A DNA stretch of 64,000 bases from Cristatella mucedo (Eukaryota; Bryozoa; Phylactolaemata; Cristatellidae). The DNA lies in assembly GCA_009760855.2 (NCBI GenBank), contig WPIO01000007.1, forward strand, positions 3,910,001 to 3,974,000, read 5' to 3'. The notes beneath the pieces were generated by a model. That model was not told where the DNA came from. It was given only the letters and a program-made list of their open reading frames with translations, and searched no databases. Shown in pieces: positions 2,750-63,552 of the stretch. Position 1 is the first letter of the stretch. The number at the start of each line of letters is the position of its first letter. The position numbers and the translations under genes were made by a program.

Positions 2750-3657
2750 TCTGTGAGTGGCCTGTGCTATTGCGAAACTGGTAGAATTAAGTCCTCAGCT
2801 CGAAATCTAGGTGTCATATTCCAAAGCGACCTCTCGTTTGACGACCATATCAGCTCCACAGTCAAATCCGCCTATTTTCAGCTTCATAACATTGCTAAAA
2901 TTCGGGCTTGTTTAGATAAAGATACCACGTCCAAGTTGGTCCATGCATTCGTGACATCCCGTCTCGACTTCTGCAACTCACTGCTTGCTGGCCTACCAGC
3001 ATGTGCGATCAGGCGATTGCAGCTGGTGCAAAACTCTGCAGCTAGGCTTGTCTGTCGTAAGCGTCGCAGTTGCCATGTCACACAACTTCTCGCCGACCTG
3101 CACTGGCTACCAGTCAAGCAACGGATTGACTTCAAGGTTTTGTCGCTCACTTTTAGGTCCCTTCATTCTATGGCTCCAGCCTATCTCTCAGATATACTAC
3201 CCCATCAGGCCAAGCATCGTACCACCCGCTTTTCGGAATCCAACAGTCTCGAAATACCTCATACAAACCTTAAATCCTTTGGAGACCGTGCATTTAGTTC
3301 ATATGCTCCCAAAGCCTGGAACTCCCTCCCGACCTGCGTCAGAACATCCCCTGACCTGACCACATTTAAAAGGAACCTAAAAACACACTTATTTAGGACA
3401 GCATTTAGTGGGTCCCTGTGATTCGTCCTTCACGTGCTTATGCGTGCTGACACTGTGCATGCTGCCACTAACCACATTTACATGCTGACCCTGTGCATAT
3501 CACCCCTAACCATGTTATTCATTTTGTTTGTTTTTCAAGCATGATTTTACTTACCATTCAATTGCATTTCCCTTTGCAGCAAATGTAAAGCGCCTAGAGA
3601 GAGATTACGGTCTCTGAGGGCGCTTTATCAAGTGAATTATTATTATTATAATTATTA
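2750..3657 (+). mobile_element. L2 family 1 LINE, best-preserved 3' end
   Basis: A 222-codon open frame (2753-3421) carries the C-terminal part of the LINE polyprotein: [76 protein letters not shown] and a basic end. All of this lies downstream of the RT palm. After the TGA comes a 3' UTR with a two-unit tandem motif (3446-3483 and 3484-3522), then the tail hairpin (about 3584-3630) and (ATT)n. The copy is 5'-truncated and lacks endonuclease and the RT palm. The undamaged frame suggests it is among the youngest copies. Confidence 0.92.
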
Positions 3658-17555: not shown

Positions 17556-18578
17556 TTAATAATAATAATAATAATGCACTTGATAAAGCGCCCTCAGGGA
17601 ACTCAATCTCTTTCTAGGCGCTTTAAATTTGCTGCAAAGGGAAACGCGATTGAATGGTAAGTAATAGTATGCTTGATAAACAACATGAATAACATGGTTA
17701 GGGTGACGTGCACAGGGTCAGCATGCAAATGTGGTTAGTGGCAGCATGCACAGTGTCAGCACGCATAAGCACATCAAGGACGAATCACAGGGACCCACTA
17801 AATGCTGTCCTAAATAGGTGTTTTTAAGTTCTTTTTAAATGTGGTCAAGTCAGGGGATGTTCTGACGCAAGTCGGGAGTGAGTTCCTGGCTTTGGGAGCA
17901 TACGAGCTAAATGCACGGTCTCCAAGGGATTTGAGGTTTGTACGAGGTATTTGTAAACTGTTGGATTCCGAAAAGCGGGAGGTACGATGCTTGGCCTGGT
18001 GGGGTAGTAGATCTGGTACGTAGGCTCGAGCCAAAGAATGGAGGGACCTAAAAGTGAGTGACAAAACCTTGAATTAAAGTGTTGCTTGACTGGGAGCGAG
18101 TGAAGTTTAGGAGACGTGGGTGTGGGAACTGCGACGCCCACAACAGACAAGCCTAGCTGCAGAGTTTTGCACCAGCTGTAAGCGCCTGAGTGCACAGGCA
18201 GGCCGGTAGACCAGCAAGCAGTGAGTTACAGAAGTCATGACGAGATGTCACAAATGCATGGACCAATTTAGCTGTGGTATCCCTGTCTAAACAAGCCCGA
18301 GTTTTGGCAATGATATGTAGCTGACAGTAGGCAGACTTGACTTTGGAGCTGATGCGGTCGTCCAACGAAAGGTTAGTGTGGAAGAGGACACCTAGACTAC
18401 GTGCATATTTAACAAGAGATATACTGGCGGGGCCGATTTTGAGCGTTAGTTTTTCCAATTTCTGAATCACACTTGGTTTTCCTATAGCTAGTAAGTTGGT
18501 TTTATCATTATTCAGTTTGCTGCCATCCATGTGCGGATGTCATCAGTTCATGCAGCAAGGGTGTGTAGAGAATTCGAT
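17556..18578 (-). mobile_element. L2 family 1 LINE, 1-kb copy
   Basis: On the minus strand it carries a 125-codon open piece (18530-18153: [52 protein letters not shown]), then frameshifted C-terminal coding, the 3' UTR, a good tail hairpin (plus 17588-17630) and (ATT)n at 17557-17575. Similarity to other copies ends near 18578, just downstream of where the RT YADD box would be, so it is 5'-truncated. Confidence 0.9.
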
Positions 18579-28907: not shown

Positions 28908-29428
28908 GCTCTTGTCGCTCACTTTTAGGTCTCTTCATTCTATGGCTCCAGCCTATCTTTCAGATATACTACCCCATCAGGCAAAGCATCGTACCACTCG
29001 CTTTTCGGAATCCAACAGTCTAGAAATACCTCGTACAAACCTTAAATCCTTTGGAGACCATGCATTTAGCTCGTATGCTCCCACAGCCTGGAACTCCCTC
29101 CCGACCTGCATCAGAACATCCCCTGACCTGACCACATTTAAAAGAAACTTAAAAACATACCTATTTAGGACAGCATTTAGTGGGTCCTTGTGATTCGTCC
29201 TCGATGTGCTTATGCGTGCTGACACTGTTCATGCTGCCACTAACCACATTTGCATGCTGACCCAGTGCATGTAACCCCTAACCATGTTATTCATTTTGTT
29301 TGTTTTTCAAGCACGATTTTACTTACTATTCTATTGCGTATCACTTTGCAGCAAATGTAAAGCGCCTAGAAAGAGATTAAGTTCTCTGAGGGCGCTTTAT
29401 CAAGTGCAATATTATTATTATTATTATG
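28908..29428 (+). mobile_element. L2 family 1 LINE 3' end
   Basis: A 93-codon open frame (28912-29193: [20 protein letters not shown] ... [19 protein letters not shown]) is followed by the standard 3' UTR, hairpin (AAAGCGCCTAGAAAGAGATT ... GGGCGCTTT) and (ATT)n. The frame is intact to its stop, suggesting a fairly recent insertion. Confidence 0.92.
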
Positions 29429-30903: not shown

Positions 30904-31254
30904 TCATCGCGCGCCGCCGCCGCGATCCAGCTCGGCCGCGAAGTCCGGGTCGCGGTGCAGCTCGTCGATCTCGTCGCGGTGCACGCGCCTGCGCTCGGAG
31001 CGCAGAGAGCGCACGCTACGCTCCGAGCGGCTGCTCCGCTCCGAGCGCACGCTGTTCGTCTTGGCAGAGCTGCACTGCCTCTGCACGCCGAGCCTCTGTG
31101 GGCCGTCGTGACTGCCGCCAGGGGGCGGTGCGATCAGTGCAGTGACGAGCCACTCGTGCTGCAGGGCCTCGCCGGCGCTCGGGCGCTCGGCGGGCTCCAG
31201 AGCCAGCAGGCGGTCGATGAAGTCTCTGGCGCTCACACTGACCTCGGTCCAGCG
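30904..31254 (-). CDS. PSKH1: PSKH1 protein serine kinase, coding exon 2 (C-terminus)
   Basis: This exon encodes residues 313-428 and the TGA stop. It begins right after a pyrimidine-rich acceptor ending TTGCAG (AG at 31256-31255), phase 0, and continues the kinase fold as RWTEVSVSARDFIDRLL, which lines up residue for residue with human PSKH1 across the junction. The invariant arginine of kinase subdomain XI lies in ERPSAGEAL (about 336). After the kinase comes a Ser/Arg/Glu-rich tail (about 375-402) with repeated RSER and RSLR units, then an acidic DEIDEL segment; vertebrate PSKH1 has the same kind of Ser/Arg tail. Total length is 428 residues against 424 in human, so the coding sequence looks complete. 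No canonical AATAAA or ATTAAA on this strand was seen in roughly the next 1 kb, so the mRNA 3' end is not located. Confidence 0.93.
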   Translation of the reverse strand, partial: RWTEVSVSARDFIDRLLALEPAERPSAGEALQHEWLVTALIAPPPGGSHDGPQRLGVQRQCSSAKTNSVRSERSSRSERSVRSLRSERRRVHRDEIDELHRDPDFAAELDRGGGAR

Positions 31255-31609
31255 CTGCAACGAGGGAGCGAGGCAGCGGCTCAGTCAGCGAGTGAGCAAG
31301 CAAGCCTCGAGGAGTCGAGACGACTCGAGAAACGCAGCTTCGGGCACGGCTGAGCGGTGGCGCCTCAGAGCAGAGGTGCCCAACGTATCCAACAGATTGG
31401 ATACGTTGTTGGATACGCATCTTGTAGCATGCAAGTCTCGACGAACCGGCACCAAGGCATGAATTGCCCAACTCGGCCTATTTATTCACTGGCCTTTGCT
31501 CGCACGAGCAGGCCATTCAGACGGGTCTTGTGGCTTTGGGAAGGCAGAGTTGAGTAGCAAACAGATCCTCTGCTTGCTGCCCCTTTCTCCCTTTCTCAGC
31601 ACACACCGT

Positions 31610-35949: not shown

Positions 35950-36465
35950 CAACACCCCAAGCTAACTGAGCGCTCGCCCTAAACCGACGTTTGAACTTAC
36001 TTCTAGTGTGTTCCATGCCATTAGCCTCAGCTGTTGGCCAGGAGCATCGGTCCCTAGTCTTCAAGCTGCATTCGCAACCACAAGGTGCAATCATTAAGGG
36101 AATGCCAGTTATTTCTGTGATTGTCACCGTCTCTATCCAGCCGGCCAACGAGCTCGGCAGCCAGCAAGGTGGGGCAGCCAGCTCTCTACCCGAGAGCCAG
36201 GTGAGGATGGCTCGCACGACAAAACCAGCTCTCTCGAGCGTCGAACACAACACAACTTGCCGACCGAGACACATCTCTCACCGGCGGGCGTCAAACGCGA
36301 CGGACACTAGCAGGGCACAGAGGCGAGCGAAGTGCGACCGCAGAAGACGGCTCAGCGACGAGCGATGGCAAGAAGGCGATGCGGCCTGGCTGAGGAGTAC
36401 TGGGCAGCTGGGGGGGGGAGGGGAGGAGAACGCGACGCTGGCTAATGGTGCGGCGGCTGGGCTAC

Positions 36466-37401
36466 CTCTCCTGCGTAGCTGTACTTGGCTTTCAAAATCT
36501 GCCGATAGAGGCGAGTTCGGTCGTCGTCGTAGAACGGCATGGCGCCGCTCAGCAGAATGTACGCGATCACGCCGACGGCCCACAGGTCGACCGGGCTGCT
36601 GTAGGGCTTTCGCGCCAGAATCTCGGGCGCTATGTACTCCGGCGTGCCGCACGTTGTTTGCATGAACTCGTCCGACGTCCTCTTGGCGGCGCTCAGGCCA
36701 AAGTCCGTTATCATGATCCTCGAGTCGTGGCCGGGATGGTAGTAGAGCAGATTCTCTGGCTTCACGTCCCGGTGCGTTATGCCCAGGCCGTGCAGGTACC
36801 GGAGGCCGGACAGCACCATCCGGACGACGCTGGCCGCGTCCTTTTCGGCGAAGAAGCCCTTGCTGATGATTCGGTCTAGCACGTCGCCGCCGGTGGCCAG
36901 CTCCATGACCATGTACACCTTGTCCTTGCTCTCGAACACCTCCACGAGCAGGATGACGTTCGGATGCTTGACGCGCCGCAGCACTCTCAGCTCCGCCTCG
37001 ATCACGTCCCTGCCGAGCGTGCGCTCGATCATCTTTATGGCGTACGGCTGCTTCGTGACTTTGTTCTCCACGCGGACGACGCGACTGAAACTGCCGCGAC
37101 CGATTAGCGCCTTGATGTCGTACTTGGCAGTCACGCGGTGGTCGAAGCGAAATCGGCACGACTTGGCCTTCTCCTGCTGCGGCTGCGGCGGCTGCTGCTG
37201 CGGCTGCCCGTTCTTGCGGACGGCGTCTCCCGATTTGCCGCTGCTGACGCCATCCGAGTTCTCGACGACGCCCTCGCCATCGCCGTTGCCCCGATCATCC
37301 GCCGAACCGGGAAGGACGTCGGTCGCCGGAGCGAACACCGGTTGCACGCCCGGTCCGTCGTCGTAATCGTCAACTGCTAGCTTGCTGTTTAAGCAGCCCA
37401 T
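36466..37401 (-). CDS. PSKH1: PSKH1 protein serine kinase, coding exon 1
   Basis: Exon 1 encodes residues 1-312 of a PSKH1 orthologue, a CaMK-group Ser/Thr kinase; the human protein is linked to Golgi, centrosome and nuclear speckle. I chose the ATG at 37401 because it gives MGCLNSK, matching the myristoylated and palmitoylated MGC..S start of vertebrate PSKH1, with G at -3 and +4. Residues 20-80 are a variable, Gln/Pro-rich linker. The kinase domain starts near residue 94: glycine loop GRGSFS (101-106), VAIK-type lysine K123, alpha-C glutamate E137, catalytic HRDVKPEN with D212 (V replaces the usual L), DFG at 233-235, CGTPEYIAPE with APE at 258-260, and DLWAVGV near 272. The exon ends after GAG (Glu312) at a GTAGCC donor (36465-36464), phase 0. 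Codons are GC-rich against AT-rich surroundings. All catalytic residues are present, so an active kinase is expected. Identity is very secure; function is by family. Confidence 0.95.
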
Positions 37402-38117
37402 GTCACGGCTCCTCCGGCGAACGAAGCGCAAGCAGTCATCGCGGAATGGCACTCCCCATAGGATAGGTCGGGGGCAGCGGTACTCGAAAGCTCGCAGTCA
37501 ACATCAGCTACTCGCTAAAGCCAGGCAACTAATCCCACAGTTGTAGGGGAGGGGACACCTGAGCTGCCTACCGTAGAGGCTGAGTTCGTGCGCCGAGCGA
37601 AATAGTTCTCGACGCTGCACTACTTCGCTGCACTGCTTTCGAGTAAATTCTTGCAAGGCGAACCACCGCGTGGTGGTGAAGACCTCGTCTACTACTGCGC
37701 GTACAATTTGCGATTTTAGTTTTCCGTCGATTCCCCGTTGCGACTCGAGTCACGCGCCTCCGTCAGCCGGGTGGGAGGAGGGCACTCAGTTATTGTTGCG
37801 CTGACCCCGTGATTGTTCGCAGCGGGACAATGGCGGGTATCTTAAGTTAGTGCATCCGTTATCCGGGTCGGCAGGGCTGTGACCCCCAGCTGTGCGGAGG
37901 TACTGTTACATCAGGGGTGTAGAGGTTTCCACGATCCGACAGAACTAGGCTGCAAACAATTCGCTCGAAACGGAGCTAATCCTTGCTGACGTGAGACAAA
38001 TACAGGCGAAGCCTTGAATCTTTGGACCTAGGCTGGCGACATGTAGGGGGCCTGCACAAATCAAGCGGATGTGCCGACAGTAGTGCAACTCGGCAGCAAC
38101 GAAGAAAAAAATGCGAG
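37402..38117 (-). other. PSKH1 5' flank and upstream DNA
   Basis: The first 350 bases or so upstream of the PSKH1 start are richer in CpG than the surroundings, which fits a 5' UTR and promoter, and the sequence GCCGTGACATGG gives a fair start context. I see no TATA box at a convincing distance and cannot place the transcription start or any 5' UTR intron. Beyond about 37800 nothing recognisable is present before the SINE at 38118. Confidence 0.4.
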
Positions 38118-45354: not shown

Positions 45355-45820
45355 ATTTGCCGTCATGCCATCAGGCCAAGCATCGTGCCACCCGCTTTTC
45401 AGAATCCAACAGTCTACAAATACCCCGTAAAAATCTCAAATCCTTTGGAGACCGTGAATTTAGCTCGTATGCTCCCAAAGCCTGGAACTCCCTCCCGACC
45501 TGCGTCAGAACATCCCCCGACCTGACCACATTTAAAAGGAACCTAAAAACACACCTATTTAGGACAGCATTTACTGGGTCCCTGTGATTCGTTTTTTCAC
45601 GTGCTTATGCGTGCTGACACTGTGCATGCTGCCACTAACCACATTTGCATGCTGACCCTGTGCATGTCACCCCTAACCATGTTATTCATTTTGTTTGTTT
45701 ATCAAGCATGATATTACTCACCATTCAATTACATTTCCCTTTGCAGAAAATGTAAAGCGCCTAGAGAGATTGAGTTCTCTGAGGGCGCTTTATCAAGTGC
45801 ATTATTATTATTATTATTTT
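45355..45820 (+). mobile_element. L2 family 1 LINE 3' end
   Basis: A 76-codon open frame (45357-45587: ending in [20 protein letters not shown]) is followed by the 3' UTR, hairpin and (ATT)n. The reading frame is intact to the stop. Confidence 0.9.
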
Positions 45821-46197
45821 TATATGCGATCCTGGGCACGAACAACCTTCCAGCTCGACTTTTTCCACACGTCACCCAATTCGACAAAAATGGCCCACTC
45901 TACTAAAACTGGCGAAACCAATTTGTTAATTGTACGCTGCTTCTGCTACGAGCAGGGGTGCCGCAGTCTCAATGTCCGGGTTGCAAACACAGCCACTAAC
46001 GGTGCTAGCCCAGCCGACGCATGACAAATACTGGTAAAACCCCGAGGTATTGCGGTTAGTAACTTGTAAATGCAGCACTAATGCAGCTAGGAACGCCGAC
46101 AATAGCTTAACACGGCAGCAACGAAGCACATCCTTACCTTACGATAGCAAGTCCAAATCAATAGCTCAGAGACGTCTATTCGACGACGACGGAGGTT

Positions 46198-47762: not shown

Positions 47763-48798
47763 CCGGTGTAACGGGCCAGAGTTCATCCGGGCTTAAAATG
47801 GCCTAGGCCACTTTATATCCAGCGTGAACAGTCGGCTATGCCCAACTAGACCCCTCCAGGCCTGAAGATACCACATCTGAAAGATGACTCGGAGCACGAC
47901 ATTTTTTTAACTCTAACTCTTTTAATTGTTGTTTATTGTTCAGAATTGGCCCGATCGTCTAGCTTTGTGGGCAAGTGGCGCTACCTTGTTCATGGCAACT
48001 TGAAATTGAGGCAATCAAGAATGCATCCGCGCGAGGAGGTTGTGCGACACAGCAATCATATCAGTGATCAACACTGAGGTCATTACAGCAGACAGCCCGA
48101 GGCCGTCCTCGCTTACCTGCTCCCTAGACCATACATATGTATATAATTCATTTATATAGCGCCCTAAGAGAAAATAATCGCTACTCGGGCTGTTCACATA
48201 TGCCACGGGGCTCGAGCACACGACCTCGGTCATCAAAAAGAAATTACTCTCCCCTCGACTTCGGTCGAGGTGAGAACCTTAACCCAAGTGCCAAACCAGC
48301 CGGCGTGCTGCAGATGCCCATAATCCTGTTCAACTAGACAGCACACTACACTTTAGGTAGCCGGGTACGTTTCAAGCTTGCAGCAAAGAGTATGACCAAG
48401 ATATGCATCAGAGCAGCCTACATTCCTCGCCCTTCCTCCTGCTAACCTATACTCTACGCCTGCTGCTGCCAAAAAGCGTGAGCTTACTGTCATCTTTAGC
48501 AGCGCCAGAAGCGGCGTCGTTACAGGCTAGGGCGCCGAGTAGTGCGAGCCTTAAGGTAAGAGCGGTGGGGGGGGGAGCAGGGAATAAGGTGCCAGGGTCG
48601 GTGCCGGCTCGGATATTAAAGCCGTCACGTAAAGATTCGCGTGTGTGCGTCGGTCAAAACTATATATATATGATAGGGTATAATTTGGGAGTAAAAAGTG
48701 CCCTAGACCATAATATACCTCCGGGGTATAAAGTGGCATAGGCTGTTTTAACCCGGGTGTACGCCGGCCTGGGTGTATACCCTAGCTCGTTACGCAGA
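47763..48798 (-). mobile_element. element E, copy 2 (inverted)
   Basis: Reverse-complement homologue of 44041-45256. Its left end starts CCGGTGTAACGGGCCAGAG and its right end, read inward on the minus strand, starts TGCGTAACGAGCTAGGGTAT, so the terminus consensus is near (C)CGGTGTAAC..GC(C/T)AG(A/G)GTATAC. The two ends carry TIRs of about 110-125 bases. About 280 bases at 48130-48412, including a SINE A, are absent from copy 1. A frame of about 26 codons ending ...MHS-stop (stop at 48015) is shared with copy 1 (stop at 44983). Confidence 0.7.
48140..48305 (-). mobile_element. SINE family A inside element E copy 2
   Basis: Minus-strand head GCCGGCTGGTTTGGCACTTG, GGTTAAGGTTCTCACCTCGA, B-box region GTGCTCGAGCCCC and the shared tail ending GGGCGCTATATAAATG. 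The head contains about 25 extra bases (TTGATGACC side) relative to other copies. Confidence 0.8.
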
Positions 48799-49149
48799 AG
48801 CGCAGCTACGCCGTTCAAGTTACAAGTAGCTGTTTGTCACCATACGTTCGATCTCTCGTTTTCCAGACACCCGGTCTCTTGTTTGAGCTACTGAAACTGC
48901 GAGTCAAACTCTTCAAGAGGCCTTACTTTCATTCCGTCTTTCCACTGAACCGTAAAACTCTGACGTGGTACTCATTCTCTCGGACCCAACTTCCGACAGT
49001 CATTCACAGGCTCAGCCGCCTCTTTAATTCGCTTAAAAGTAGTGGAGTAGCCACATTTCAACTAGAAGATCCCAGTGGATCTTCCCGGCGGCTATGTTCG
49101 CGTCCCAGATTGCCCCAGAGGGCGCCCTAGTTAAAACTCGCCGAGGCAA
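48799..49149. other. unassigned DNA between E ends
   Basis: No gene recognised between the right end of E copy 2 and the palindrome. Confidence 0.3.
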
Positions 49150-49257
49150 GCGCTCCTCCGTAGATGCCACCTACTCCAGCGAGCGGCTCCAATACAGACT
49201 AGACTCTAGTCTGTACAGGAGCCGCTCGCTGGGGTAGGTAGCATCTACGGGGAGCGC
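49150..49257. repeat. 108-bp near-perfect palindrome
   Basis: The left arm 49150-49203 and right arm 49205-49257 are inverted copies with four substitutions and one indel, around a single-base centre (GACTAGA C TCTAGTC). It would form a long hairpin in RNA or a cruciform in DNA. It sits just outside the E end at 49269. Confidence 0.93.
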
Positions 49258-49268
49258 GTCTCTGAGTT

Positions 49269-49382
49269 CCGGTGTAACAAGCTAGAGTATACCCCCAAGC
49301 CAGTGTTAATACAGCCTGTGCCAGTTTATATATCCCGGAGGTATATTATGGTCAAGGGCACTCACTTTATACCTCTCTGGGC
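49269..49382. mobile_element. element E, solitary end
   Basis: It starts CCGGTGTAACAAGCTAGAG like the left end of E copy 2 and runs inward through CCCGGAGGTATATTATGGTC and GGGCACTCACTTTATACCTC. The similarity stops where the hAT-like sequence begins. Confidence 0.65.
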
Positions 49383-49550
49383 GCGCGACCCTTTAATACA
49401 GTTCCTCATGTTGTGGCGACCCCCCCCCCGACCATACAATTGCTGTATGCAAAATGCGGAAATGCGTGCTTTCCGATAATCTTAGGCAAACCCCCGTGAA
49501 AGGGTCGTTCGACCCCCAAGGGGGTCGCCACCGCAGGCCGAGAGCCGCTG
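49383..49550. mobile_element. SPIN/URR1-like hAT MITE
   Basis: From memory of vertebrate hAT-Charlie/SPIN-type MITEs, this matches in order: GACCCTTTAATACAGTTCCT, CATGTTGTGGCGACCCCC, TTTCCGATAATCTTAGGC, GTGAAAGGGTCGTTCGACCC, GGGGGTCGCCACCGCAGG and a terminal GAGAGCCGCTG (end of TIR, normally CAG(C/T)GG... on the other strand). The right terminus is intact at 49550; the left terminal 25 or so bases are lost or replaced where it abuts element E. It has no coding capacity. Confidence 0.8.
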
Positions 49551-51904: not shown

Positions 51905-53866
51905 TAGGGTCTTTTTTATACTAAGAGAACACATTTTTTATTCATGGGCTTTACAATTCGCTGCAAGAGTTAAATTAATCAGTAGTTCATGAAAGGCAAA
52001 GTATCCTGCTTAGGCTAGCATGCAAAACCACGCATTCATCATGCCCAGACAAGCATGCAAAACGACACAATAGACTCAAGGTTAGTTCGACCCGTTAGTA
52101 ACAATCACTGAATTGTGCACAGGGAAACAAAGCACACTGGAAAAAAGACAGGTCCAGTGGGGCCCTGTACAAAAGCTGTTGCTGTTGCCTCTGGTCGCAG
52201 CGTGCACGATTTTATAACCCACGACTACATAGAAGGACTATTCACTCGGACAGAGCAAAGGCTGTGTGGTACAGGTAAGTTTTCAGTGTCTATTGGAATG
52301 TCGTCAAATCAGAAGATGGCGTGACGTTGGTCGTTAGTGAGTTCTAAGCTTTGGTATCATAGTAACTGTAGTCATGGTCGCCAACCGATTTCAAGTTAAT
52401 TCTTGGCACAAGTGCGCTGGGAGACCTGAATGAAATTAATTCAGATATGCTGGCAGGAGCAAGATAATGGAGGGATCGAAAGGTGAGTGACAGGGTTTTG
52501 AAGTCTGTTTGCTGCTCGATAGTTAGCTAGTGCAGACTTGTCACTTCTGGTATAATGTGGCAGTTGCGATGTTTACGACAGATAATCTACAAGTAGTGAG
52601 TGACCAAAGTCTGGTCGGAATGTCACAAAAACATGGGACTGTGGTGTCCTCACTTAAGTAAGCCAGAATTTTTGCAATGTTACATGGATGAAAGTAGGCT
52701 GATTTGACTCTGGTGCTGATGTGCTCATCTGTTGACAAGTCATTTTGGAAGAGGAAATCCAGATTATTGGCGGATACTACAGGAGATTCGCTGGTAGAGG
52801 CGATTTAGAGAATTAGGCTTTCCAGTTACGGAGTAAAACTTGGTTTGAATTGGTTTTATTGGCATTCAATTGCAGAAAGTTTGCTGTCATCCAAGTACAA
52901 ATGCTAGCAAGGGAGCCCCGAGTGTTTGAGATGCTATGAGGCAGAAAAGGATCAAAGCAAAAGTAAACCTTGTCATCTGCATAAAAATGAATGGCTAGTT
53001 TTCACTTGATAGATAAGGATACCACGTCTAAGTTGGTCCATGCATTCGTGACATCTCGTCTCGACTTCTGCAACTCACTGCTTACTGGCCTCCCAGCATG
53101 TGCGATCAGGCGATTGCAGCTGGTACAAAACTCCGCAGCTAGGCTTGTCTGTCGTGAGCTTCGCAGTTGCCACATTACTCCACTTCTCGCCGACCTGCAC
53201 TGGCTACCAGTCAAGCAACGGATTGACTTCAAGGTTTTGTCGCTCACTTTTAGGTCCCTTCATTCTATGGCTCCAGCCTATCTCTCAGATGTACTACCCC
53301 ATCAGGCCAAGCATCGTACCACCCGCTTTTCGGAATCCAACAGTCTAGAAATACCTCGTACAAAACTCAAATCCTTTGGAGACCGTGCATTTAGTTCGTA
53401 TGTTCCCAAAGCCTGGAACTCCCTCCCGACCTGCGTCAGAACATCCCCTGACCTGACCACATTTAAGAGGAACTTAAAAACACACCTATTTAGGATAGAA
53501 TTTAGTGAGTCCCCGTGATTCGTCCTTGATGTGCTTATGCGTGCTGACACTGTGCATGCTGCCACTAACCACATTTGCATGCTGACCCTGTGCATGTCAC
53601 CCCTAACCATGTTATTCATTTTGTTTGTTTTTCAAGCATGATTTTACTTACCATTTAATTGCATTTCCCTTTGCATTAAATGTAAAGCGCCTAGAAAGAG
53701 ATTAAGTTTTCTGAGGGCGCTTTATCAAGTGCATTGTTATTATTATTATTATTATGGTTACATCTGCAAACGGTAGAGAATAAGCTGTGAAAAGGAGTAG
53801 ACCTAGACCGGTACTGAATAATTGCTTTCCATTGACACCTATTCTATAGATTTCAGTATCCACTAG
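51905..53866 (-). mobile_element. older L2-type LINE with YADD box, split by another LINE
   Basis: On the minus strand the 5' part (53866-53754) reads STGLGLLLFTAYSLPFADV and the 3' part (52997-51905) continues HFYADDKVYFCFDPFLPHS, WMTANFLQLN and a decayed C-terminus and tail. The catalytic YADD box is preserved, the only intact one in the window, though frameshifts follow. The plus-strand LINE 52998-53753 interrupts it between ADV and IHFYADD, flanked by ATGGCTA and ATGGTTA. Confidence 0.85.
52998..53753 (+). mobile_element. L2 family 1 LINE nested in an older LINE
   Basis: A 175-codon open frame (52991-53518) carries [49 protein letters not shown] and [10 protein letters not shown], then the 3' UTR, hairpin and (ATT)n. 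It is 5'-truncated. It sits in the opposite orientation inside the LINE 51905-53866 with a 7-bp target duplication ATGG(C/T)TA (52991-52997, 53754-53760). Confidence 0.93.
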
Positions 53867-61580: not shown

Positions 61581-62909
61581 TAAGTAGAAACATCTGGACG
61601 TTCTTTTTCTTTAACTAGTTACCATAATTTCACTAGTTGCTACACCAAGTTGAACTAACTTTCTAATTTCGAAGCTGTGCAGACTGAGTTTGTCAAGGTT
61701 CCTATGCCACATCCACGAGAATGTGGTATAGAATACGGGATCATAGCCGAAAATGCTCGTCAGTGCTCCTTTCAATCTTCCTGTGCAATACTGATTTAGA
61801 TGCTGTTAGTAAATGTCATATGTACTTCTAGCGTATCTCCTAATTCCTGTGCTCAGCCGATGGCTATCCATCCATGTGCTTACTTTTGTAGCTGCAGTGA
61901 GTACTCGTGGGATGCTTGACGCAACTGCATGATGCGTTGTAGCTTCTTCTTGGATCGTGGCTCAATTGGATCGGTGAGTTGACCCTTGGATTATTGCTTA
62001 CGGGGGATATAGCGAGGCGGAGCTCGTGGTCTGAAACCCACCTTGGAGATCTAGAATCACTCAATTGACGTCTTTCCATAATCAGGGCATGCTATTTCGT
62101 AACACGCTGTAGTTGGATGGTGTAGTTGGATGAGCGCATTGCCTCAACTGTCAAATCAGTCAAATGCTCCGCCTTTGCTGTTGTTTTACAGGCACTACTC
62201 TCTTGAGAGCCCACACTTCTTAAGTGTTGACACAGGCTTTGCATCTGATGTTGAACCCCGTGCCTGGCTTTCTGGCTACTCGGCCGTGTCTTTTCCTCAC
62301 GGGTGTTTAAACTGGGCTTAGCTTAAGGCCGATTGCTTTCTCCTGCTTCGTTGCTTGCTGTGCACTGTGCAGTACAGGGATTTGCACACGGGCGATCACG
62401 GAGTGCACACTGGAGATCTGCTTGCACTCTTGCTGAGGTTTTTCACTGGCTGCTCTTCTCGACCAATCTAATTGTCCACAATTGCCATTCATTCCAAGCT
62501 GTCCCGATCCTTCGGAGTCTCTCTCTCTCCCTCTCACGCTCTCACGAGCATTGGTGTGGTGCTCGCAGCCTTGCTCAGTTATTGGCTGGAAATATCTGTT
62601 TACGAGAATTGCCGCGTTGGTATCAAGTATCCCTTGCTAAAGTCCGATAGAGGCTGTTTATAGCAAGATGGTTTTACTTGGTTACAGATGCTTAGGAACA
62701 AAGTGCTCCAACGTGACGTTACTCGTTGTTAGAGCTGGTCTGCTAAATCTCCTAATCCACCTATCTGCATACTAATCAGCGTACCGACTTCGAGATGACG
62801 TGTTTGGTGCTATGTTCAAGCTACAAAGCTGACTCAAACAGTGTATCCCTGACCTCAAAGTTACTACGATCAATGTCCGATTGGACCGTCCTAGGCAGAT
62901 GGCAAGCTT
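61581..62909. other. unassigned DNA
   Basis: An acceptor-like GCTGTTGTTTTACAG at about 62177-62191 precedes a 43-codon open stretch ending at 62321. Product not recognised, so not called. Confidence 0.25.
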
Positions 62910-63552
62910 AATAATAATAATGCACTTGATAAAGCGCCCTCAGAGAACTCAGTCTCTTTCTAGGCGCTTTACATTTGCTGCAAAGGGAAACGCGATTGAA
63001 TGGTGAGTAATATCGTACTTGATGAACAACATGAATAACATGGTTAGGGGTGACATGCACAGGGTCAGCATGCAAATGTGGTCAGTGGCAGCATGCACAG
63101 TGTCAGCACGCATAAGCACATCAAGGACGAATCACGGGGACTCACTAAATTCTATCCTAAATAGGTGTGTTTTTAAGTTCTTTTTAAATGTGGTCAGGTC
63201 AGAGGATGTTCTGACGCAAGTCGGGAGGGAGTTCCAGGCTTTGGGAGCACACGAAGTAAATGCACGGTCTCCAAAGGATTTGAGGTTTGTACGAGGTATT
63301 GGTAAACTGTTGGATTCCGAAAAGTGCGTGGTACTATGCTTGGCCTGGTGGGGGAGTAGATCTGAGAGATAGGCTGGAGCCCAAGAATGAAGTGACCTAA
63401 AAGTGAGCGACAAAACCTTGAAGTCGCTGGTAGCCAGTGCAGGTCGGCGAGAAGTGGTGTGATGTATCAACTGCGCCGCTCACGACAGACAAGCCTAGCT
63501 GCAGAGTTTTGCACTAGCTGTAATGGCACATACTGGTAGGTCAGCAAGCTTG
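62910..63552 (-). mobile_element. L2 family 1 LINE 3' end
   Basis: (ATT)n, hairpin (plus 62930-62972), 3' UTR, then a 112-codon open piece (63470-63132: [20 protein letters not shown] ... [20 protein letters not shown]). A short internal deletion lies where LPVKQRI should be (near 63430). It ends near 63552. Confidence 0.9.

What the first reader, a model, noticed from the sequence alone, without database searches (positions are those of the whole stretch)
49383..49550. SPIN/URR1-like hAT MITE in an invertebrate-looking genome
Several blocks of 15-30 bases are, as far as I can recall, the same as vertebrate hAT MITEs of the SPIN/URR1 kind, in the same order, with an intact right terminus. SPIN elements are a published case of horizontal transfer among vertebrates and a few invertebrates. 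Such conservation in a non-coding MITE is hard to explain by vertical descent.
Basis: partly seen in the sequence, partly recalled or inferred. Interest (0 to 1): 0.75.

Follow-up and report, generated by a model that had tools for sequence, protein, structure and literature searches.

The report
SPIN-like jumping gene, likely invertebrate host
The window holds one old copy of a short cut-and-paste transposon that is almost the same as one found in mice, and the animal it sits in has many more copies plus broken full-length relatives, which fits a jump between distant animal lineages.

Summary
The finding holds up. Window 49384-49550 is a decayed copy of a 187-bp non-autonomous hAT element. 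Its own unnamed 572-Mb genome gave 1,879 first-look candidates, of which 40 were scored and matched. In 46 distinct aligned copies, 32 have 8-bp TSDs matching at 7 or 8 positions; the family consensus has both TIRs. It matches a rodent URR1-type consensus that I recalled: 177 of 187 ungapped columns, first 58 of 58 identical, 38 further gap columns. A printed mouse copy matches 65 of 78 columns, or 50 of 63 outside the word used to find it. Four elements carry both ends of the short element. Three are 2.96-3.29 kb with broken pieces resembling a Buster-like transposase, so the short element is best read as an internal-deletion derivative. The window copy is the most diverged of the 46 (K2P 0.143; mean of all 0.058) and lacks its left TIR and TSD. 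Horizontal transfer is the best explanation but is inferred: no second eukaryote genome and no host name were available. SPIN-like elements are already reported in Rhodnius and Biomphalaria, so this is a new member of a known kind.

The parts
49384..49550 (+). Recognisable body of the SPIN/URR1-like hAT MITE copy (family consensus 187 bp)
   Evidence: Alignment to recalled rodent consensus, score 133 vs shuffle maximum 30; 40 scored copies in own genome, this one included; family alignment
49535..49550 (-). Right terminal inverted repeat, read inwards CAGCGGCTCTCGGCCT; family consensus CAGCGGTTCTCAACCT
49363..49383 (.). Place where the left TIR should lie in the family alignment; eroded or replaced, no recognisable CAGTGGTTCTCAACCT
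   Evidence: left 16 bases CACTTTATACCTCTCT, TSD match 0 of 8
49384..49424 (+). Left subterminal block, 40 of 41 identical to the recalled rodent consensus; 49387-49424 matches a printed mouse copy at 31 of 38
49466..49550 (+). Right subterminal block, 72 of 84 ungapped positions identical to the recalled rodent consensus (2 gap columns)
49413..49424 (+). Subterminal motif GTGGCGACCCCC, exact inverted partner of 49520-49531
   Evidence: I4, 12 of 12
49520..49531 (-). Inverted partner of the subterminal motif (GGGGGTCGCCAC on +)

Best explanation
49384-49550 is an old copy of a 187-bp non-autonomous hAT element (MITE) of the SPIN/URR1 kind, from the Buster-like branch. It spread because a roughly 3-kb relative with the same ends once made a transposase that recognised the TIRs and subterminal motifs, cut the element out and pasted it into nnnTAnnn targets, duplicating 8 bp. 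The short element arose from the long one by internal deletion. The family is probably no longer moving in this genome: the three long relatives read have broken frames, and the 40 copies scored closest to the consensus are 94-96% identical to it, not more. The near-identity of its non-coding consensus to the mouse element is best explained by horizontal transfer of one transposon lineage between distant animals. Shown here: copies, ends, TSDs, longer elements with the same ends, similarity to printed mouse DNA. Inferred: transposase action, the deletion event, loss of activity, and the horizontal transfer with its direction and date.
For: With the window copy as query: 1,879 first-look candidates, 40 scored and matched; with the consensus as query: 2,336 candidates, 40 scored at 94-96% plus one more row at 85%. 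Unscored candidates are not confirmed copies. Consensus with both TIRs. TSD match at least 7 of 8 in 32 of 46 distinct copies, against 597 of 23,000 shuffled pairings; TA at flank positions 4-5 in 39 (right) and 36 (left) of 46. Consensus vs recalled rodent consensus 177 of 187 ungapped. The recalled left TIR and the bases after it, written down before any genome copy was seen and absent from the window copy, agree with the genome consensus over its first 58 bases. Printed mouse FDH-locus copy 65 of 78 columns, 0 of 1,000 letter shuffles as good; Ate1 R2 18 of 20, 0 of 1,000. 4 of 10 Buster-like peptide matches carry the MITE left end; those four (three re-fetched with longer flanks) show both ends, spans 3,110, 2,956, 3,288 and 1,123 bp, TSD 8/8 in L087 and L049, 7/8 in L089. 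35 of 58 flanks of the 29 other loci match the window, 33 of them by repeats other than this element.
Against: The URR1 consensus and the Buster peptide are from memory. Part of the mouse support is circular: the FDH-locus copy and Ate1 R1 were found with a recalled 15-base TIR word, and Pqbp1 site 83 with a 15-base word that is in the window; outside these words the FDH copy matches 50 of 63. Pqbp1 site 84, from the middle of the mouse element, does not match the family beyond chance (84 of 1,000 shuffles as good), and site 83 is matched or beaten by 1 of 1,000. The middle differs (38 gap columns). Pieces of L087 gave no Pfam or NCBIfam match and the one compared with the PDB gave none. The window copy has no left TIR and no supported TSD; L088 has no TSD; 10 of 46 copies match at fewer than 6 TSD positions. 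Scored copies are the best matches, so divergence and copy number are biased.
Confidence: 0.85

Rival explanations
1. Vertical descent: the element was inherited from the common ancestor of this animal and mammals, and its ends stayed alike because they are transposase binding sites.
For: hAT ends are functionally constrained (established knowledge); the middle of the element differs between this family and the mouse one.
Against: The copies examined are on average about 6% from their consensus (best matches only), so the family was active fairly recently, yet that consensus is nearly the same as the rodent one over about 160 bp of non-coding DNA (recalled reference). The URR1B insertions studied in PMC13061629 are stated to occur only in mice and rats (passage), and SPIN is patchy in mammals (PMC5857283, passage).
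Confidence: 0.08
2. Contamination: a piece of vertebrate DNA was assembled into the host contig.
For: None found.
Against: Matches on 27 contigs, with TSDs in most copies tested, among repeats shared with the window; the window copy lies inside a 12.8-Mb contig.
Confidence: 0.01
3. Another Buster-like hAT family that shares mainly its ends with SPIN/URR1 and should bear its own name.
For: Internal 38-column difference; transposase not compared with the SPIN transposase; subterminal TGGGTCGCG repeats are also described in Buster1 elements (PMC4298943, passages).
Against: Similarity covers most of the 187 bp, well beyond TIR motifs.
Confidence: 0.2
4. The host is a lamprey or other vertebrate, so the case is not vertebrate-to-invertebrate.
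For: High GC3 (0.84) in the kinase exon and GC near 46% reminded me of lamprey (recalled).
Against: Only one globin-domain candidate and match in the genome search, most like a cytoglobin but weakly (E 8.2e-6). Not decisive: genes split by introns can be missed. The vertebrate fibrinogen search did not complete.
Confidence: 0.15

Closest known systems
URR1A/URR1B of mouse and rat (hAT MITE)
   Same: TIRs and subterminal blocks nearly identical (recalled consensus: first 58 of 58; printed mouse copy, taken to be of this family, 65 of 78)
   Different: A stretch of the rodent element covered by 38 gap columns is absent or different here; one middle string from mouse does not match
SPIN (SPACE INVADERS), including forms in Rhodnius prolixus and the Biomphalaria glabrata hAT reported to resemble SPIN
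   Same: hAT superfamily, short derivatives, presence in far-apart animals (passages of PMC11614815 and PMC5440852)
   Different: No SPIN sequence was available to align; the host here is unnamed and could not be compared with those hosts
Buster1 elements (planarian, Mengenilla, Rhodnius; PMC4298943, passages)
   Same: Buster group of hAT, MITEs by internal deletion, GGGTCGCG-like subterminal motifs
   Different: TIR CAGGGCTTCTTAAAC, not CAGTGGTTCTCAACC

Membership tests
hAT superfamily (non-autonomous MITE) | Short TIRs starting CAG | tested here: met
   Family consensus ends CAGTGGTTCTCAACC / CAGCGGTTCTCAACC; the window copy keeps only the right one
hAT superfamily (non-autonomous MITE) | 8-bp target site duplication | tested here: met
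   32 of 46 distinct copies match at 7 or 8 positions vs 597 of 23,000 shuffled; not met for the window copy itself
hAT superfamily (non-autonomous MITE) | Autonomous relative with the same ends and a hAT transposase | tested here: inconclusive
   L087, L088, L089 and L049 have both ends and pieces matching a recalled Buster-like peptide; no Pfam hit for three L087 pieces; frames broken
Buster group | TSD with central TA (nnnTAnnn) (recalled) | tested here: met
   TA in 39 right and 36 left flanks of 46
SPIN/URR1 | High nucleotide identity to the reference consensus | tested here: inconclusive
   Met against a recalled rodent consensus (177 of 187 ungapped) and part of the printed mouse strings; no database reference available
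SPIN/URR1 | Transposase groups with SPIN transposase | not tested
   I had no SPIN transposase sequence to compare with; Pfam and solved structures gave nothing for the pieces tried
Horizontal transfer | Element divergence well below host neutral divergence | not testable with these tools
   No second eukaryote genome and no host name

The most novel reading that the evidence does not exclude
This animal belongs to a lineage in which SPIN has not been reported and once carried complete 3-kb SPIN-like elements, so it or its relatives were a link in the chain that spread SPIN between vertebrates and invertebrates.
Probability: 0.35. Interest if true: 0.6.

Novelty: new member of a known kind. 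Interest (0 to 1): 0.45.

Why it matters
SPIN is a well-known case of horizontal transfer of a transposon across animal phyla. Another host with many short copies and several long though broken relatives would help trace the route and date of the spread. It does not reveal a new kind of element.

Tried and rejected
No match to the element in phages, plasmids or E. coli genomes, nor by exact 20-22-base patterns in viral contigs or by a 21-base pattern in GTDB genomes. An 18-base near-palindromic pattern gave 5 bacterial loci, taken as chance and not studied further. No second copy in the window by blastn. Rfam: no match at gathering; below threshold, mir-3130 and MIR1432 at 49151-49255, which I put down to the long near-palindrome there. 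TSD of the window copy: not supported. Recent hAT burst as the MITE's partner: set aside, since only chance-length matches to the MITE were seen in the 10 loci fetched of 63 high-scoring matches; their far ends may lie outside the fetched stretches. Host identity: mollusc haemocyanin (PF14830), arthropod hemocyanin (PF03723) and annelid linker (PF16915) domains gave no match, each with the warning that nothing rang in the controls either, so these are weak; vertebrate fibrinogen (PF08702) was asked eight times and never answered, 18S (RF01960) once and not answered. Literature: DNA words searched in paper texts gave papers in two searches and none in two; one of the four papers found (PMC2837401) I did not open. 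SPIN in lamprey: I saw no such statement in the listings, which is not a claim that it is unpublished. Gilbert 2012 (PMC3350315) is not held. Lamprey GC3 listing was not read further.

Full report
What is there. Within it, 49384-49550 aligns to a rodent URR1-type consensus that I wrote from memory, with 140 of 160 ungapped positions identical, 47 gap columns (140 of 207 if all are counted) and score 133. In 2,000 dinucleotide shuffles the best score was 30, and in 1,150 other window comparisons (575 tiles, both strands) it was 30. The longest exact runs are 33 bases from 49384 and 24 bases from 49496.

Check of the recalled reference. Because that consensus was recalled after seeing the window, I looked for real mouse DNA in paper texts. 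A recalled TIR word, not present in the window copy, led to a mouse FDH-locus sequence printed in PMC8376875 (called Adh5 in my scripts, a recalled gene name) and mouse Ate1 primers in PMC2767504. A word that does occur in the window led to a Pqbp1 site list in PMC3713010, which I take to be mouse from its abstract. I saw passages only. The FDH piece matches window 49387-49424, outside the search word, at 31 of 38 positions; 0 of 968 other window comparisons are as good. On the window itself Ate1 R2 is equalled in 2 of 968, Pqbp1 site 83 in 0, Ate1 R1 in 42 and Pqbp1 site 84 in 759. Against the recalled consensus the five strings match at 66 of 78, 19 of 19, 18 of 20, 17 of 17 and 27 of 29 columns. 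The last covers a middle stretch that the window lacks, so the recall is not a copy of the window. The recalled left TIR was also written down before any genome copy had been seen, is absent from the window copy, and agrees with the genome copies found later.

The family in its own genome. The genome search first answered. The window lies in an unnamed 572-Mb assembly of 688 contigs. With the window segment as query, 1,879 first-look candidates were found and 40 scored: the window copy and 39 others at 81-86% identity (plus one 26-base secondary row), on 27 contigs. The 30 fetched loci, put in one orientation, give a 187-bp consensus with both TIRs. With that consensus as query there were 2,336 candidates and 40 scored, at 94-96% identity, plus a further 85% match beside one of them. 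The remaining candidates are unscored, so a copy number near two thousand is only suggested. Merging the 60 loci fetched in the two searches leaves 46 distinct copies: mean K2P to consensus 0.058, median 0.053, range 0.033-0.143, the window copy being the most diverged. All are best matches, so this is biased to copies near the consensus or near the window copy. TSDs match at 8 of 8 positions in 15, at 7 or more in 32 and at 6 or more in 36 of 46; random pairing of the same flanks gives 7 or more in 597 of 23,000. TA is at positions 4-5 in 39 right and 36 left flanks. The window copy has neither left TIR nor a supported TSD. Of 58 flanks of the 29 other loci, 35 match the window, two of these (L012, L022) through further copies of the element itself and 33 through other repeats. 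That argues against contamination.

Relation to the rodent element. Family consensus vs recalled rodent consensus: 177 of 187 ungapped columns identical, 38 gap columns in the middle, first 58 of 58 identical. Printed strings vs family consensus: FDH-locus copy 65 of 78 (0 of 1,000 letter shuffles as good; 50 of 63 outside the 15-base search word), Ate1 R1 18 of 19 (0; mostly the search word), Ate1 R2 18 of 20 (0), Pqbp1 site 83 17 of 17 (1 of 1,000; 15 bases are the search word), Pqbp1 site 84 16 of 22 (84 of 1,000, no support).

Long relatives and mechanism. A recalled Buster-like C-terminal peptide found 10 matches in the genome (119 candidates, all scored). In four of ten (L048-L051) the MITE left end lies in the same 3.1-kb stretch. 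With longer stretches fetched for three of them (L087, L088, L089 for L048, L050, L051), all four show both ends: L087 3,110 bp (TSD 8 of 8), L088 2,956 bp (no TSD), L089 3,288 bp (7 of 8), L049 1,123 bp (8 of 8). MITE positions 1-77/81 and 95/97-187 match their termini at 86-94%. In L087-L089 the reading frames are broken into pieces; three L087 pieces gave no Pfam match, two no NCBIfam match, and one no PDB match. The simplest mechanism is the ordinary hAT one: a transposase from such long elements mobilised the short internal-deletion derivative, making 8-bp duplications. The single strand of the window copy folds better than shuffles (z -2.9, 1 of 200 as good), as expected from its inverted subterminal motifs.

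A different hAT looks like the recently active one here. The Dimer_Tnp_hAT search gave 138 matches (766 candidates, 150 scored); 63 score 69-78 bits, 55 of them an identical 76.8, several in open frames of about 640 codons. L042 is 99.2-99.9% identical to the nine other fetched loci over 2.0-2.2 kb. In these ten loci only chance-length (10-13 base) matches to the MITE were seen, and the border seen on one side reads ...TACAGCCCTA. The other ends may lie outside the fetched stretches. It is probably not the partner of this MITE.

Horizontal transfer. A non-coding sequence active fairly recently in this genome, with a consensus almost equal to that of a murine element, is hard to get by vertical descent. 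SPIN transfers into several mammals are dated to 15-46 million years ago (PMC5857283, passage). Four transposon families of Rhodnius, SPIN among them, share up to about 98.1% identity with vertebrate ones (PMC11614815, passages). [quoted passage not shown] I did not measure host divergence; direction and date stay open.

The host. GC is 42-54% along the window, CpG observed/expected 0.77, and a protein kinase exon has GC3 0.84. I considered lamprey from memory. A single globin match in the genome, closest to a cytoglobin at E 8.2e-6, speaks against a vertebrate without settling it. Three invertebrate marker domains also gave nothing, with uninformative controls.

Verdict. It is a new member of a known kind, of moderate interest.

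Noticed in passing
L037-L046 and further places: A different hAT element in what looks like a recent burst: 63 of 138 transposase-domain matches score 69-78 bits, the ten fetched copies are 99.2-99.9% like L042 over about 2 kb, and several matches have open frames near 640 codons.
   Followed up: partly
window 48697-49362: A unit bounded by imperfect inverted repeats (48697-48752 and 49305-49362) with a 108-bp palindrome of about 90% at 49150-49257 inside; its right arm abuts the eroded left end of the MITE.
   Followed up: partly
window 36442-37497 (-) and 30904-31284 (-): Two pieces of a CaMK-like protein kinase gene, which I take from memory to be PSKH1; the first has GC3 0.84.
   Followed up: partly
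window 2750-3421, 17557-18577, 28912-29427, 45368-45823, 53010-53754, 62909-63549: Many copies (best pair 94% alike) of what looks like the 3' end of a LINE; two of its frames gave no Pfam match and the family was not identified.
   Followed up: no
L012 and L022 flanks; G000:C676:2828045-2828224: Further copies of the MITE close to other copies.
   Followed up: no
window 49151-49255: Sub-threshold Rfam hits to mir-3130 and MIR1432 on the near-palindrome; put down to the long hairpin.
   Followed up: partly
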